Below are positions 143 through 64,000 of a DNA stretch of 64,000 nucleotides, piece after piece. This DNA comes from Antedon mediterranea. Taxonomy: Eukaryota > Echinodermata > Crinoidea > Comatulida > Antedonidae. Numbering within the stretch: position 1 is the stretch's first letter; every line of letters begins with the position of its first letter. The translations under genes were made by a program, and so were the position numbers. The stretch is from positions 20,226,912-20,290,911 of the forward strand of contig NC_092675.1 in the NCBI RefSeq assembly GCF_964355755.1, written 5' to 3'. Below the pieces are notes generated by a model, which was given only the letters and a program-made list of their open reading frames with translations, had not been told where the DNA came from and did no database searches.

Positions 143-182
143 GCTTTAACCATGGAGGTATTTTATACCTCCATGCTTTAAC
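143..182. repeat. Palindromic micro-insertion with 8-bp target duplication (unit A)
   Basis: A 24-bp near-perfect palindrome (151-174, ends CATGGAGGTAT and ATACCTCCAT, TTT loop) sits between two copies of GCTTTAAC (143-150, 175-182). Units B (near 21236) and D (near 63611) have a single GCTTTAAC and no palindrome, which is a clean empty site. The same insertion is in unit C at 46953-46992. Confidence 0.8.
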
Positions 183-4378: not shown

Positions 4379-11978
<7,600 letters not shown>

Positions 11979-17192: not shown

Positions 17193-17751
17193 TAAGCTTG
17201 TACGGTACTTATAGTACTTATTTTGGGTGTATTTATTCCGCATTGCTGTTCGCCTTAAAATGTTGTTCGATCATCTGCGATATGCACAATATCATAATGG
17301 CATCAAATTTATGAATGTGATCGAGTGGGTATACTGTACCTGTGAGTCTTTTTTTTAAACCATAGACCTACATTTCTTCTTTTTTTCTTCTTCGCCGTTT
17401 TAATTTAATTGAAACTATAACTATGAAATTAATTAATGATAAAATTATCGAACTGAAAAACAGAATTAATATTCTTGTAGGCCTCCATACTGTTGCATTT
17501 GTTGATACACATAAAACGAAGTAACGTTTCCAAGAAACATGACATTAACGTATTGGAAATGGAAAAACACACCTATTAAAAGTTTTATTCAAAGTGTATT
17601 GTCCACTAAGCAAATATTTTATTTCGCGAGAACGCAATGCGTATAAATATTTTCATCTATTGTGCTTTTTGACACGAAAAAATGACATACCGACCTAACA
17701 TCAGAGTTCATAGGATGTTCGATTCGCGGAAATATATCGCTTTGTGAAAAA

Positions 17752-17984: not shown

Positions 17985-19166
17985 AATGAATATTGGTTTT
18001 TTTTTAAAGAGAGATAAATAATAATAATAATATATAACACAATTAGAAACTCCAAAAAACAACAATTTAACTAATATCTTTTCTCTAACACATAAGTTTA
18101 AAACTAAAAAACAAGTAAAAAATAGATTATATAAATTATTTTAAAAATATCCTAATATGTCATTAATAAAAGAATTTACAAAGAACCTTCAACCAATAAT
18201 AGTTTAAATTGACGTTAAATAAAGCACCGTCCGTATACACTTGTTGATGTGTATAAACGCACACCGTCACTGCGTACGTATACGCCTATGAATGACAGCC
18301 TCGTTATGAAGACGTGTCACATGACAAACGTCTTCAAATATTCACAAACATTCCACCAATCAACTTAGTGACTTATTTCTATTTTATATTACTGTGCTCC
18401 ACTGTTGCTAAATTTGGTCCACTGAACCAGTTACCGTAGTACTATTTCTATTTCTATTTCGGAAGTAAATAAAGGCATAAATGGCGCTCCGTAGAAGTAG
18501 AGAATGTTCGATCGTCGAAATGACACTCTGAATATACCTCCACATTTTGGGGATTTGGCATTATTTTTCCCAATCTGGCATTATTGAGACAGGCTACAGA
18601 GTACAGCATAATTTAAATTATCAACGCTGACCAAAGAAGGAAGGATATTGACATTATCAATGACAATTTTATCCATCTTTAAATAAAATTACCAGGATTG
18701 GTGACATTTATAGAAACTTGCGTCGTCAACTCAGAGACTATAGTCATTCATTTTCCGTCCGGGTACGACGGTAAGTAAGGCCACTTGTGGCATCATGCAT
18801 GATGGAGTAATCTTCACTCCATGCTTGTGCTGGTATACTCGCTGCATCCTGCTAACAGGCGATGTGAAAATTGTACTCCCGTCCAATAACGACAATGGCC
18901 TTTATTTATTCGCGCGTTATTTATTACCGTTCTGCATTTTATGGCATTATCAATCAATCAACTTATCAATCAATATTGAAACACTAGTTATAGTTTATTA
19001 ATTTACAAAATTGAAAAGCAAAAGTGAACTTTTATTTATCTTTATATCCCCTGAATAATTATGCATATAAGAGCCCATGTTTGCGAGGAAAAAAAAGTAT
19101 AAAATACACCACTAAACAATGTGTCCACATATACTTAGATATTAAAAATCATAATCAATCAAGCCA
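17985..19166. other. AT-rich 3' flank of unit A, no gene seen
   Basis: Homologous to the ends of units B and C. It includes a hairpin-like ATGGAGT...ACTCCAT (about 18801-18822), present in every unit, and TTTGGCATTATTTTTCCC. No coding or RNA gene is supported. Confidence 0.5.
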
Positions 19167-20818: not shown

Positions 20819-21518
20819 GGAGTAGTTGTCCTGGGGGTATTTGTCCTGGGGGTATTTGTCCAGGGGGTAGTTGTCCTAAGGGAGGGGGTGTTGTCCGGGG
20901 GGTAGTTGAACCGGGGGTAGTTGACCGGGGGTAGTTATCCTAAGGGGGTAGTTATCCTAAGGTAGTTGAACCGGGGGTAGTTGAACCGGGGGAGTTATCC
21001 GGGGGGTTGTTGTCCTAAGGGGGTAGTTGTCGTCCTAAGGGGGTAGTTGTCCTAAGGGCGTAGTTGTCCGGGGAGTAGTTGTCCTGGGGTAGTTGTCCTA
21101 AGGGGGTAGTTGTCCGGGTGGTAAACATCGGGGGATAACTGTCTAGGGGGTAGGTGTCCTAGAACCATATATATATATATGAAAATGTTGTTGAAAAGTG
21201 ATATTGTACTTTGAATCTTGGTGCCAACCTAATTATAGCTTTAACATTAATAAATACTGTAGGCCTATTGTATAACTTTAAAAAAGAAATCACAGATATA
21301 TAGGAAATAATGTTTCTTTGAAGGAATAAAATGTATAGGCCTATACTTGATGTCAAACTTTCCAGACGGGTATATCGCTTTAAGCGATGCATGCGCATCA
21401 ACCAAAGACGAGGTTGAAACATCAGATTCTCTTATGTATAAAGAAATGTCTTATCACTGTTCATTCAAAACAGAGATACTCAAACACATTTATTTATTTT
21501 ATTTGTTCTTTCTTTAAA

Positions 21519-24014: not shown

Positions 24015-33283
<9,269 letters not shown>

Positions 33284-37204: not shown

Positions 37205-37784
37205 AAGCTTGTACGGTACTTATTTGTAAAGTTTTTTTTGTGTATTTATTCCGCATTGCTGTTCGCCTTAAAATGTTGTTCGATCATCTGCGATATGCAC
37301 AATATCATAATGGCATCAAATTTATGAATGTGATCGAGTGGGTATACTGTAGGCCTACCAGTGAGTCTTTTTTTTAAACCATAGACCTACATTTCTTCTT
37401 TTTTTCTTCTTCGCCGTTTTAACTTAATTGAAACAGACTAAAGCTATAACTATGAAATTAATTAATGATAAAATTATCGAACTGAAAAACAGAATTAATA
37501 TTCTTGTAGGCCTCCATACTGTTGCATTTGTTGATACACATAAAACGAAGTAACGTTTCCAAAAAACATGACATTAACGTATTGGAAATGGAAAAACACA
37601 CCTATTAAAAGTTTTATTCAAAGTGTATTGTCCACTAGGCAAATGTTTTATTTCGCGAGAACGCAATGCGTATAAATATTTTCATCTATTGTGCTTTTTG
37701 ACACGAAAAAATGACATACCGACGTACCTAACATCAGAGTTCATAGGATGTTCGATTCGCGGAAATATATCGCTTTGTGAAAAA

Positions 37785-44330: not shown

Positions 44331-44732
44331 ATTGTTATATCATATTTGTTTCTCAATCTTTAAATAAAATTACCAGGATTGGTGACATTTATAGAAACTT
44401 GCGTCGTCAACTCAGAGATAGTCATTCATTTTCCGTCCGGGTACGACGGTAAGTAAGGCCACAGTTACTTGTGGCATCATGATGGAGTAATCTTCACTCC
44501 ATGCTTGTGGTGGTATACTCGCTGCCTCCTGCTAACAGGCGATGTGAAAATTGTACTCGCGTCCAATAACGACATGACAATGGCCTTTATTTATTCGCGC
44601 GTTATTTATTACCGTTCTGCATTTTATGGCATTATCAATCAATCAACTTATCAATCAATATTGAAACACTAGTTATAGTTTATTAATTAATTAATGTTTG
44701 CGAGGAAAAAAAAGTATAAAATACACCACTAA

Positions 44733-46952: not shown

Positions 46953-46992
46953 GCTTTAACCATGGAGGTATTTTATACCTCCATGCTTTAAC
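46953..46992. repeat. Palindromic micro-insertion with 8-bp target duplication (unit C)
   Basis: Same 24-bp palindrome at the same site as unit A 143-182, with GCTTTAAC on both sides. It was therefore inherited by A and C before they separated, or moved by conversion. Confidence 0.8.
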
Positions 46993-48089: not shown

Positions 48090-48841
48090 GGACTAGTAGG
48101 TTAGGACTAGTAGGTTAGGACTAGTAGGTTAGGACTAGTAGGTTAGGACTAGTAGGTTAGGACTAGTAGGTTAGGACTAGTAGGTTAGGACTAGTAGGTT
48201 AGGACTAGTAGGTTAGGACTAGTAGGTTAGGACTAGTAGGTTAGGACTAGTAGGTTAGGACTAGTAGGTTAGGACTAGTAGGTTAGGACTAGTAGGTTAG
48301 GACTAGTAGGTTAGGACTAGTAGGTTAGGACTAGTAGGTTAGGACTAGTAGGTTAGGACTAGTAGGTTAGGACTAGTAGGTTAGGACTAGTAGGTTAGGA
48401 CTAGCAGGTTAGGACTAGCAGGTTAGGACTAGCAGGTTAGGACTAGCAGGTTAGGACTAGCAGGTTAGGACTAGCAGGTTAGGACTAGCAGGTTAGGACT
48501 AGCAGGTTAGGACTAGCAGGTTAGGACTAGCAGGTTAGGACTAGCAGGTTAGGACTAGCAGGTTAGGACTAGCAGGTTAGGACTAGCAGGTTAGGACTAG
48601 CAGGTTAGGACTAGCAGGTTAGGACTAGCAGGTTAGGACTAGCAGGTTAGGACTAGCAGGTTAGGACTAGCAGGTTAGGACTAGCAGGTTAGGACTAGCA
48701 GGTTAGGACTAGCAGGTTAGGACTAGCAGGTTAGGACTAGCAGGTTAGGACTAGCAGGTTAGGACTAGCAGGTTAGGACTAGCAGGTTAGGACTAGCAGG
48801 TTAGGACTAGCAGGTTAGGACTAGCAGGTTAGGACTAGTAG
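48090..48841. repeat. 14-bp minisatellite, about 54 copies (unit C)
   Basis: GGACTAGTAGGTTA for about 22 copies, then about 31 copies of GGACTAGCAGGTTA (from about 48401), then a final AGTAG copy. The block structure shows that one variant unit was amplified as a contiguous run. Confidence 0.95.
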
Positions 48842-51447: not shown

Positions 51448-52950
51448 ATGAATTTATACAAAAGTGAACATTGTGGAGATAAACTTCAAACACACCAAGA
51501 GTTTAAATTTCTTCGATGTCAAGTGAACGTTGTCAGACTTTGTCTAGATTTAAATAGTGGATGGAGCAGACATTTGGGAGAGTACACAGAAGAGACGCCA
51601 TATGAATGTGTACATTGTGGAAAGAAATTCAACCAGAATGACGATCTGAAAAAACATATGAGAATACACACAGGAGAGAAACCATATGAATGTGAACATT
51701 GTGGGAAGAAATTCAACCAGAATGACGATCTGAAAAAACATATGAGAATACACAAAGAAGAGACACCATATAAATGTGAACATTGTGGGAAGAAATTCAA
51801 AGACAATGATGATCTGAAAAAACATTTGAGAATGCACACAGGAGAGAAACCACATGAATGTGAACATTGTGGAAAGAAGTTTAACCAGAGTGACGATCTG
51901 AAAAGACATATGAGAATACACACAGGAGAGAAACCATATGAATGTGAACATTGTGGGAAGAAATTCAACCAGAATGACGATCTGAAAAAACATATGAGAA
52001 TACACAAAGAAGAGACACCATATAAATGTGAACATTGTGGGAAGAAATTCAAAGACAATGATGATCTGAAAAAACATTTGAGAATGCACACAGGAGAGAA
52101 ACCACATGAATGTGAACATTGTGGAAAGAAGTTTAACCAGAGTGACGATCTGAAAAAACATATGAGAATACACACAGGAGAGGAACCATATGAATGTGAA
52201 CATTGTGGAAAGAAGTTTAACCAGAGTGATGATCTGAAAAAACATTTGAAAATACACACCAGAGAGAAAACATATGAATGTGAACATTGTGGGAAGAAAT
52301 TCAACCGGAATGACAGTTTGAAAAAACATATGAGAATACACACAGGAGAGAAACCATATGAATGTGAACATTGTGGGAAGAAATTCAACCACATTTGGAA
52401 TTTGAAAATTCATTTGAGAATACACACAGGAGAGAAACCATATGAATGTGAACATTGTGGGAAGAAATTCAACCAGATTGGGCGTTTGAAAATTCATTTG
52501 AGAATACACACAGGAGAGAAACCATATGAATGTGAACATTGTGGGAAGAAATTCAACTGGAATGACGATCTGAAAAAACATACGAGAATACACACAGGAG
52601 AGAAACCATATGAATGTGAACATTGTGGGAAGAAATTCAACCGGAATGACGTTCTGAAAAAACATATGAGAATACACACAGGAGAGAAACCATATGAATG
52701 TGAACATTGTGGGAAGAAATTCAACCAGATTGGGAATTTGGGAAGACATTTGAGAATACACACAGGAGAGACACCATATGAATGTGAACATTGTAAAAAG
52801 AAATTCAACCAGATTGGGAATTTGGGAAGACATTTTAGAATACACACAGGAGAGACACCATATGAATGTGAACATTGTGGGACGAAATTCAAACAGAATG
52901 ACGATCTGAAAAAAACATTTGAGAATACACACAGAAGAGACACCATATGA
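51448..52950 (+). CDS. Poly-C2H2 zinc-finger protein C (500 aa)
   Basis: The leader is the same as in A and B, but the first cysteine is mutated ([12 protein letters not shown]), in line with that half-finger not being needed. Fifteen complete fingers follow. Fingers 2-4 and 5-7 are a 252-bp (three-finger) tandem duplication ([23 protein letters not shown] with HECEHC starts). TGEKP linkers dominate, giving a more canonical array than A or B. Unusual residues include [13 protein letters not shown] and NHIWNLKIH. The frame ends in the 16th finger, where a seventh A shifts it ([13 protein letters not shown]), the same type of end as other decayed fingers in the cluster. Predicted nuclear nucleic-acid binding protein with no effector domain visible. 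Expression unknown. Confidence 0.75.
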
Positions 52951-57046
<4,096 letters not shown>

Positions 57047-61460: not shown

Positions 61461-61496
61461 GACATACCATGGAGTAAATTACTCCATGGACATACC
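61461..61496. repeat. Second palindromic micro-insertion with 8-bp target duplication
   Basis: A 20-bp palindrome (61469-61488, ends ATGGAGTAA and TTACTCCAT) sits between two copies of GACATACC (61461-61468, 61489-61496). Units A (near 17684) and B (near 37711) have one GACATACC and no palindrome. Its ends ATGGAG/CTCCAT match those of the 24-bp insertion at 151-174. Confidence 0.8.
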
Positions 61497-61785: not shown

Positions 61786-63471
61786 ATGAATAGGCCTATT
61801 GGTTTTTTTTAAAAGAGAGATATGTGACACTGTATTGTCAAATATGGATGGCACCATACCGGTAGGTATTCAAATATGCTTAATCGATGTAAAAATACTT
61901 TTAAAATAATAATTCATCAATTCTCATCTTTTTCTTATCTCGTAAAAACTTTTATTACAATTCCTTGGAAGTCATTCTAAGAAATAATACATCATCTGAA
62001 ACCTGTAATAATTGTATAATATAAAATATTACACATTTTCTGTATGTAGTTTTAAGTGTATACGTACACACATTCTCATGTGTATGACATTGCGTAAACA
62101 TTGTGATGACAGCCTGGTTATGAAGACGTGTCACATGACAATCACAGTAAAATATTCACAAACCAATCCGATCGGCCTACACATTCAATGTCATTTCATT
62201 TCATTTCATTTATTTATTTCACTTTACAACTATATAAATATACAGTGGAGGAGCCTAAAAGAAAGCAAAGCTTGTGGTGAATAGGCTCCTCAAAACAAAA
62301 CAAAATAAAATAGAAATAATATATAACACAATTAGAAACTCCAAAAAACAACAATTTAACTAATATCTTTTCTCTAACCCATAAGTTTAAAACTACAAAA
62401 CAAGTAAAAAATAGATTATATAAATTATTTTAAAAATATCCAAATATGTCATTAATAAAAGAATTTACAAAGAACCTTCAACCAATAATAGTTTAAATTG
62501 ACGTTAAATAAAGCACCGTCCGTACGTATACACTTGTTGATGTGTATAAACGCACACCGTCACTGCGTACGTATACACCTATGAATGACAGCCTCGTTAT
62601 GAAGACGTGTCACATGACAAACGTCTTCAAATATTCACAAACATTCCACCAATCAACTTAGTGACTTATTTATATTTTATATCACTGTGCTCCACTGTTG
62701 CTAAATTTGGTCCACTGAACCAGTTTACCGTAGTACTATTTCGGAAGTAAATAAAGGCATAAATGGCGCTCCGTAGAAGTAGAGAATGTTCGATCGTCGA
62801 AATGACACTCTGAATATACCTCCACATTTTGGGGATTTGGCGTTACTGTATTTTTCCCAATCTGAGACAGGCTACAGTACAGCATAATTTAAATTATCAA
62901 CGCTGACCAAAGAAGGAAGGATATTGACATTATCAATGAACAATGTTATTGTTATATCATATTTGTTTCTCAATCTTTAAATAAAATTACCAGGATTGGT
63001 GACATTTATAGAAACTTGCGTCGTCAACTCAGAGATAGTCATTCATTTTCCGTCCGGGTACGACGGTAAGTAAGGCCACAGTTACTTGTGGCATCATGAT
63101 GGAGTAATCTTCACTCCATGCTTGTGGTGGTATACTCGCTGCCTCCTGCTAACAGGCGATGTGAAAATTGTACTCGCGTCCAATAACGACAATGGCCTTT
63201 ATTTATTCGCGCGTTATTTATTACCGTTCTGCATTTTATGGCATTATCAATCAATCAACTTATCAATCAATATTGAAACACTAGTTATAGTTTATTAATT
63301 TACAAAATTGAAAAGCAAAAGTGAACTTTTCTTTATCTTTAGGGGATAATCCCCTGAATAATTATGCATATAAGAGCCCATGTTTGCGAGGAAAAAAAAG
63401 TATAAAATACACCACTAAACAATGTGTCCACATATACTTCGATATTAAAAATCATATAATCAATCAAGCCA
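61786..63471. other. AT-rich 3' flank of unit C, no gene seen
   Basis: Includes the 10-bp-stem hairpin (62248-62291) and the ATGGAGT...ACTCCAT hairpin (about 63100-63120). It gives the undivided version of the site that holds the 5-kb complex in unit B (near 62938). No gene is supported. Confidence 0.5.
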
Positions 63472-64000
63472 TCAAAATATAACCAAGCCTCACCAGTAAA
63501 AATTGAAAATTATACAAAATGGGATATTATGGATGGTATAGGCCTATATATGAAAATATTGTTGAAAAGTGATATTGTACTTTGAATCTTGGTGCCAACC
63601 TAATTATATAGCTTTAACATTAATAAACTTTAAAAAAGAAATCACAGATATATAGGAAATAATGTTTCTTTGAAGGAATAAAATGTATAGGCCTATACTT
63701 GATGTCGAAATTTCCAGACGGGTATATCGCTTTAAGCGATGCATGCGCATCAACCAAAGACGAGGTTGAAACATCGGATTCTCTTATGTAAAGAAATGTC
63801 TTATCACTGTTCATTCAAAACAGAGATACTCCAACACATTTATTTATTTTATTTTGTTCTTTCTTTAAACTGAAATACACTTTCAATACAAATTTACTGA
63901 TTTCCAAAGTGGTTCAGTAAACATACAGTATTTTACAACAAAAATAAAATATAAAAGAAAAACAAAAAGAAAGAAAACTGATATAAAACTATTTACAATT
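63472..64000. repeat. Tandem segmental duplication, unit D (5' end only)
   Basis: The landmark recurs at 63472 and homology to the starts of A, B and C runs to the window end, so a fourth unit continues beyond the window. Like B it lacks the 24-bp palindromic insertion of A and C, and it shares with B the variant TTTAAGCGATG where A and C read TTTAAGAGATG. It has private micro-insertions at 63541 (GGCCTA) and 63926 (CAGTA). Confidence 0.85.

What the first reader, a model, noticed from the sequence alone, without database searches (positions are those of the whole stretch)
143..182. Tiny palindromic insertions (20-24 bp) flanked by perfect 8-bp target duplications
Two independent sites show the same thing. 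In A and C a 24-bp palindrome lies between two GCTTTAAC copies, while B and D have one GCTTTAAC and no palindrome. In C (61461-61496) a different 20-bp palindrome lies between two GACATACC copies, while A and B have the empty site. Both palindromes end ATGGAG...CTCCAT. An 8-bp duplication is the signature of hAT- or P-type cut-and-paste integration, but the inserts are far smaller than any MITE I know of. They could be extreme internal deletion products or hairpin-end remnants of a transposon with ATGGAG termini, or a minimal mobilised palindrome. A related hairpin (ATGGAGT...ACTCCAT, near 18801, 44481 and 63103) is fixed in all units.
Basis: partly seen in the sequence, partly recalled or inferred. 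Interest (0 to 1): 0.8.

Follow-up and report, generated by a model that had tools for sequence, protein, structure and literature searches.

The report
Excision scars of P-type transposons
The tiny palindromes are most likely not a miniature mobile element but scars left where transposons related to the fruit-fly P element jumped out and the cell glued the broken ends together, and this animal genome seems to carry more than a thousand of them.

Summary
In detail: two window sites carry a palindrome between direct repeats, and other tandem copies of the same DNA have the empty site. Best explanation: excision footprints of P-superfamily transposons. Genome-wide, ATGGAG-N(4-16)-CTCCAT occurs 2148 times against 786 for the reversed control. 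Of 40 sites read, 27 have an exact 7-bp duplication outside CATGGAG...CTCCATG; mismatched flank pairs give 0.03. The duplication is 7 bp, not 8. Parents exist: a 6.3-kb element on contig C11 has both CATGGAGGTATAAAAATAGAAGG ends, a 7-bp duplication and P-type transposase domains. Seven further two-ended loci also have exact 7-bp duplications. In scars picked by a 16-base end, the retained inverted repeat stops at nucleotide 18-20, then filler or overlap leads into the other arm. Drosophila P excision junctions have the same anatomy: 8-bp duplication, up to 17 nt of CATGATGAAATAACATA, filler (PMC2895639, Table 1). The mechanism is known; the scale, the 7-bp/18-20-nt geometry, the zf-AD-like transposase and a scar family with no parent seen are new to me.

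The parts
144..150 (.). left 7-bp target duplication CTTTAAC, site 1, first copy
151..175 (.). 25-bp P-type excision footprint CATGGAGGTATTTTATACCTCCATG (two rejoined inverted-repeat ends)
   Evidence: genome-wide anatomy
176..182 (.). right 7-bp target duplication CTTTAAC
21239..21245 (.). empty site 1 (single CTTTAAC) in the second copy
46954..46992 (.). same footprint and duplications as site 1, third copy (palindrome 46961-46985)
63612..63618 (.). empty site 1 in the last, partial copy
61461..61467 (.). left 7-bp target duplication GACATAC, site 2
61468..61488 (.). 21-bp footprint CATGGAGTAAATTACTCCATG
61489..61495 (.). right 7-bp target duplication GACATAC
17684..17690 (.). empty site 2 in the first copy
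37713..37719 (.). empty site 2 in the second copy
44468..44510 (.). probable footprint with extra CATCATG, between CTTGTGG repeats (site 3)
   Evidence: no empty copy seen, so less certain
63085..63127 (.). same as site 3, third copy
18784..18830 (.). same as site 3, first copy; longer left filler, one mismatch in the right repeat

Best explanation
Each palindrome is an excision footprint of a P-superfamily DNA transposon. Step 1: an element with ends CATGGAG... inserts and duplicates 7 bp of target. Step 2: its transposase cuts one strand at the element's 3' end and the other strand about 18 nt inside the inverted repeat, so the donor site keeps single-strand tails of about 18-20 nt of the repeat on both sides. 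Step 3: the two tails, which are inverted copies of each other, are joined by annealing of a few bases or with short filler, after variable trimming. The result is duplication + left arm + right arm + duplication, a short near-palindrome. Shown here: the duplications, parent elements for one end type, the arm-length limit, and the variable junctions. Inferred: that the tails are 3' single strands and that alternative (polymerase-theta type) end joining made the junctions, by analogy with Drosophila.
For: (a) 27 of 40 palindrome sites have an exact 7-bp duplication at one register and 3 more have one mismatch; cross-pairing of flanks predicts 0.03 exact. (b) Loci picked by one arm, not by palindrome: 32 of 55 have the left 7-mer again within 110 bases, against 0.47 expected, and 6 more match with one mismatch after CATG; grouped by shared flanks, 25 of 46 contexts have an exact repeat. 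(c) Parents: 8 of 8 two-ended loci put to the test, all with CATGGAGGTATAAAAA at both ends, have exact 7-bp duplications, including C11:13871856-13878179, 6,324 bp. (d) The C11 element has open frames matching TNP-like RNaseH_N (E 4.9e-24), GBD (E 2.4e-4, under Pfam's cut-off) and RNaseH_C (E 1.1e-5), in order on one strand; its relative on C6 matches the P transposase structure 6p5a at E 3.1e-9. (e) Of 20 arms in 16 loci chosen by the first 16 bases, the repeat stops at nt 18 (15), 19 (4) or 20 (1). Whole genome: 276 copies of the C11-type 18-mer but 52 of the 20-mer, and only 2 of 13 sampled 20-mer loci continue into the repeat. (f) Targets form a palindrome, about TTNGTTWAACNAA, n=50 distinct duplications. 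(g) Drosophila P{wa} junctions in PMC2895639 Table 1 have the same layout with 17-nt tails and 8-bp duplications.
Against: Of the 40 palindromes, 10 have two or more mismatches at 7 bp; L014 is an 8-bp repeat, the others look decayed, indel-shifted or chance palindromes. Of 55 one-arm loci, 17 show neither an exact nor a one-mismatch repeat by the test used. No parent was found for the arm type of site 2 (CATGGAGTAAA...), nor an exact one for site 1, nor for the abundant CATGGAGAAATAAGTTA type. The arm limit is 18-20, not the 17 of Drosophila P, and the duplication is 7, not 8. Several of the 16 loci of point (e) share one host repeat, so their arms are not all independent. The 40 palindromes all come from the first 7.5 Mb of contig C1. 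Strand polarity of the tails cannot be seen in sequence.
Confidence: 0.96

Rival explanations
1. A minimal mobile palindrome: 20-40 bp units with P-type ends that are themselves moved by the transposase in trans.
For: Some palindromes of identical sequence sit at different targets (CATGGAGAAATAAGTTATTTCTCCATG at L057, L104, L121).
Against: Interiors differ from site to site, with arms ending at 18-20 nt and non-palindromic filler. Recurrent identical ones are what a 3-base overlap (TTA) of the two arms gives. Drosophila P transposase has binding sites internal to the ends (Figure 4 legend and a cited title in PMC7776569, passages seen), which these units lack.
Confidence: 0.02
2. hAT or another 8-bp-duplicating superfamily, with hairpin-end remnants.
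For: Duplications of 7-8 bp next to short palindromes; hAT excision leaves palindromic junctions (recalled).
Against: The palindrome holds the element's own inverted repeat, not flanking DNA; parents carry P-type transposase domains and 7-bp duplications.
Confidence: 0.01
3. Ordinary hairpins or regulatory palindromes, with the flanking repeats arising by chance or slippage.
For: 786 reversed-control matches show that such palindromes also arise otherwise, and 10 of 40 sites lack the repeat.
Against: Exact 7-bp repeats at one fixed register in 27 of 40 against 0.03 expected, and empty sites in sister copies.
Confidence: 0.01

Closest known systems
Drosophila P{wa} excision junctions repaired by alternative end joining (PMC2895639, Tables 1-3)
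   Same: Target duplication, remaining inverted-repeat tail starting CATG, microhomology or filler, second tail, target duplication.
   Different: There: experimental, 8-bp duplication, 17-nt tails. Here: present in a genome assembly, 7-bp duplication, arms up to 18-20 nt, several end sequences.
Galileo (P superfamily, Drosophila; PMC4168063)
   Same: 7-bp duplications with a few 8-bp ones, palindromic 15-bp target motif with consensus duplication GTATTAC; here about GTTWAAC.
   Different: Galileo has long repetitive inverted repeats; here the two parents share 32-36 bases at their ends. Relatedness of the transposases was not tested.
Zebrafish Pdre2 / THAP9 element (PMC10983969)
   Same: P-type transposase, inverted repeat starting CAT.
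   Different: 8-bp duplication, 13-bp repeats, THAP9-type protein; no footprint set in the passages I read.

Membership tests
P superfamily of DNA transposons (parents) | transposase with P-type RNase H core split by a GTP-binding insertion | tested here: met
   C11 element, three separate open frames in order on the minus strand: RNaseH_N E 4.9e-24; GBD E 2.4e-4 (22.0 bits, cut-off 24.8); RNaseH_C E 1.1e-5 (25.7 bits, cut-off 24); matches to PDB 6p5a, E 6e-5 for C11 and 3.1e-9 for C6. Splicing of the frames is assumed.
P superfamily of DNA transposons (parents) | 7-8 bp target duplication | tested here: met
   8 of 8 two-ended loci exact at 7 bp
P superfamily of DNA transposons (parents) | short terminal inverted repeats | tested here: met
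   first 36 bases alike at both ends of L082; first 32 bases alike at the two ends of the C11 element (L122, L080)
P superfamily of DNA transposons (parents) | N-terminal THAP DNA-binding domain (usual, perhaps not essential; recalled) | tested here: inconclusive
   no THAP match at E <= 0.01 in two ORFs; a zf-AD-like stretch instead, E about 1e-5 but under Pfam's cut-off; an upstream exon is not excluded
P-type excision footprint | inverted-repeat tails left at the donor site, limited to the stagger length, between target duplications | tested here: met
   20 arms end at nt 18-20; duplications
P-type excision footprint | 17-nt 3' overhang produced by the transposase | not testable with these tools
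   needs biochemistry; the sequences suggest about 18
hAT footprint / hAT MITE | 8-bp duplication and hAT transposase | tested here: not met
   duplication is 7 bp and the parents' transposase is P-type
MITE | short element with both ends plus internal sequence, moved as a unit | tested here: not met
   no parental sequence beyond nt 18-20 of the repeats in the measured scar arms

The most novel reading that the evidence does not exclude
This genome is a natural archive of over a thousand P-type excision events. They come from several related families that share CATGGAG ends, and some of these families may be extinct here and visible only as scars: no parent turned up among the 37 loci read for the CATGGAGAAATAAGTTA type, which has 250 exact 17-nt arms in the genome. 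The enzyme is a variant P machine: 7-bp duplication, stagger of 18 or more, a zf-AD-like N-terminus in place of THAP, and a second, convergent gene in the element.
Probability: 0.5. Interest if true: 0.6.

Novelty: new member of a known kind. Interest (0 to 1): 0.45.

Why it matters
Excision scars are the usually unseen half of cut-and-paste transposition. Here they outnumber the elements: of 18 consecutive loci with one 16-base end, 1 is a two-ended element and 14 of the other 17 show an exact flanking repeat. They could give a countable record of past activity, many natural end-joining outcomes at a break of known structure in an animal other than the fly, and a way to detect transposon families with no element left. 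It also warns against annotating such palindromes as micro-MITEs or regulatory hairpins.

Tried and rejected
hAT and micro-MITE readings were rejected (see rivals). The first P-type copies I looked at (L003-L007, L049, L050) end, by alignment, in ATATCAAAGATCTT..., and the 794-aa elements (L075-L077) in CTGAGACAACAATC; neither is a parent. An apparent 9-kb pair of CATGGAGAAATAAG ends on C2 (L055) looks by eye like two separate scars. The shuffle control (mean 0.67) includes self-pairings; the cross-pair figure (0.03) is the proper one. L093 has its 7-mer repeat inside a compound scar and is counted among the 32 of 55. I did not test Galileo or THAP9 relationships by a tree.

Literature searches (one search returned no paper, one unrelated paper) listed no title or abstract on a genome-wide set of P excision footprints. 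Of those results I saw the listings (titles and starts of abstracts). I read passages of PMC7776569, PMC4168063, PMC10983969 and PMC2895639. No whole paper was read, and subscription journals are mostly not held.

Full report
What is in the window. Site 1 is filled at 143-182 and 46953-46992 and empty at 21238 and 63611; site 2 is filled at 61461-61496 and empty at 17684 and 37713. The flanks of filled and empty copies match closely. The window holds tandem copies, at offsets of about 17-26 kb, with arrays of 84-bp repeat units that read as zinc fingers by eye, which is why filled and empty alleles can be compared inside one sequence. In the uniform reading the insert is CATGGAG...CTCCATG and the repeat is 7 bp.

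Genome-wide excess. ATGGAG-N(4-16)-CTCCAT occurs 2148 times; the same pattern read backwards occurs 786 times. I fetched the first 40 distinct places listed, all in the first 7.5 Mb of contig C1. 27 of 40 have an exact 7-bp repeat at the CATG...CATG register and 3 have one mismatch; pairing left and right flanks from different sites gives 0.03 exact per 40. At the same register, exact repeats of 5, 6, 9 and 10 bp gave 0 of 40 and of 8 bp 1 of 40. One pair of the 40 (L026, L028) shares flanks. Longer end words are far more specific, both strands together: CATGGAGAAATAAG 443 against 5 for the control, CATGGAGAAATAAGTTA 250 against 0, CATGGAGGTATAAAAA 394 against 0.

Sites chosen by one arm only. 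I read 55 loci: 19 picked by hand from the lists, those being without a perfect partner arm nearby, 16 from the list and 20 from the list. 32 of 55 repeat the left 7-mer within 110 bases, against 0.47 expected when 7-mers are swapped; 6 more match with one mismatch after CATG; 17 show neither. Some loci are copies of the same host repeat; grouped by shared flanks, 25 of 46 contexts have an exact repeat.

Parents. P-type transposase domains occur in the genome: 13 matches to PF12017, 35 to PF21787, 12 to PF21788. Two related families have CATGGAGGTATAAAAA ends. One is C11:13871856-13878179 with both ends and the 7-bp duplication GATACCG. The other is represented by C3:12873686-12888305 (duplication GTTTTAG; interior only partly read), by a C6 copy that lacks the first bases of one end, by a 3.1-kb deletion derivative on C1 (duplication GTGAAAT) and by a 3.1-kb two-ended locus on C11 read at its ends only (duplication GTAAAAC). 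Four smaller two-ended loci (L083, L084, L085, L128), which may themselves be partly repaired excision sites, also have exact 7-bp duplications, so 8 of 8 put to the test. The two transposase ORFs are 31% identical. The C11 element has RNaseH_N, GBD and RNaseH_C matches in order in three open frames.

The arm limit. In L086-L101, chosen by the first 16 bases, 20 arms measured against the two parent repeats end at nt 18 (15), 19 (4) or 20 (1); shorter arms are excluded by the choice, and five or six of the 16 loci share one host repeat. Genome-wide the 18-mer of the C11-type end has 276 matches and the 20-mer 52. Of the 13 20-mer loci sampled, only L129 and L133 continue into the repeat; the others stop at 20-21, many of them, by eye, where the next base could come from the other arm. 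For the CATGGAGAAATAAGTTA type the next base is G in 16, T in 14 and A in 2 of 32 arms. By eye, most T cases read straight into the other arm, which suggests that base 18 is G. Of the 37 loci of this type read, none continues like another beyond that point apart from copies of the same host repeats (by eye), so no parent was seen. In the run of list rows from C1:328512 to C1:16161465 there are 18 loci: one two-ended element (L082) and 17 others, of which 14 have an exact flanking repeat (13, L033).

Target. 50 distinct exact duplications (of 63 exact sites) give a palindromic preference, about TTNGTTWAACNAA around the 7-mer GTTWAAC. Galileo in Drosophila also has 7-bp duplications, a few of 8 bp, and a 15-bp palindromic target (PMC4168063, passages).

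Mechanism. In Drosophila, P transposase cuts at the 3' end and 17 bp inside the inverted repeat on the other strand, leaving 17-nt tails (PMC7776569, passages). Repair junctions after P{wa} excision read duplication, CATGATGAAATAACATA trimmed to various lengths, microhomology or filler, the mirror arm, duplication (PMC2895639 Table 1). The scars here are the same object with other letters and slightly different numbers (7 bp and about 18 nt). That the tails are 3' single strands and that theta-type end joining acts here is inference.

Verdict. Ordinary in mechanism, unusual in number. Known kind; the parent families differ from the canonical P element in duplication length, apparent stagger, N-terminal domain (as far as seen) and a second convergent ORF.

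Noticed in passing
L080 147-908 (+) and L082 1047-1991 (+): The P-type elements carry a second open reading frame convergent to the transposase; the two copies share about 40% identity over 134 residues and have no confident Pfam match. A neighbouring ORF in L082 (311-703) has a cysteine/histidine spacing that looks PHD-like by eye only.
   Followed up: partly
L052 2494-4344 (-), L080 2282-4030 (-): The transposase N-terminus matches zf-AD weakly (E about 1e-5, below Pfam's cut-off) and no THAP match was listed.
   Followed up: partly
L075, L076, L077: Three copies, about 99% identical, of another P-type element with an open 794-aa frame and about 47-bp inverted repeats starting CTGAGACAACAATC; looks recently active. 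Its target duplication was not measured.
   Followed up: no
window 4499-11877, 24151-33181, 51584-56956: Arrays of 84-bp units that read as C2H2-type zinc fingers (by eye from the repeat unit), in tandem copies.
   Followed up: no
window 48090-48838: 14-bp satellite GGACTAGCAGGTTA, 53.5 copies, 99% matches, one row in the list of arrays scoring 400 or more.
   Followed up: no
L086, L088, L089, L093, L095: A dispersed repeat with shared flanks carries a scar with the same target (GTTTGAC) but varied interiors, so scars can be copied inside other repeats.
   Followed up: partly
window 12519, 33823, 57590, 13360: Single CTCCATG or CATGGAG half-sites, the first three shared between copies, perhaps decayed scars.
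   Followed up: no
G000 C1 8.19-8.42 Mb: ATGGAGTGTACTCCAT is listed six times at intervals of tens of kb, suggesting a repeated block.
   Followed up: no
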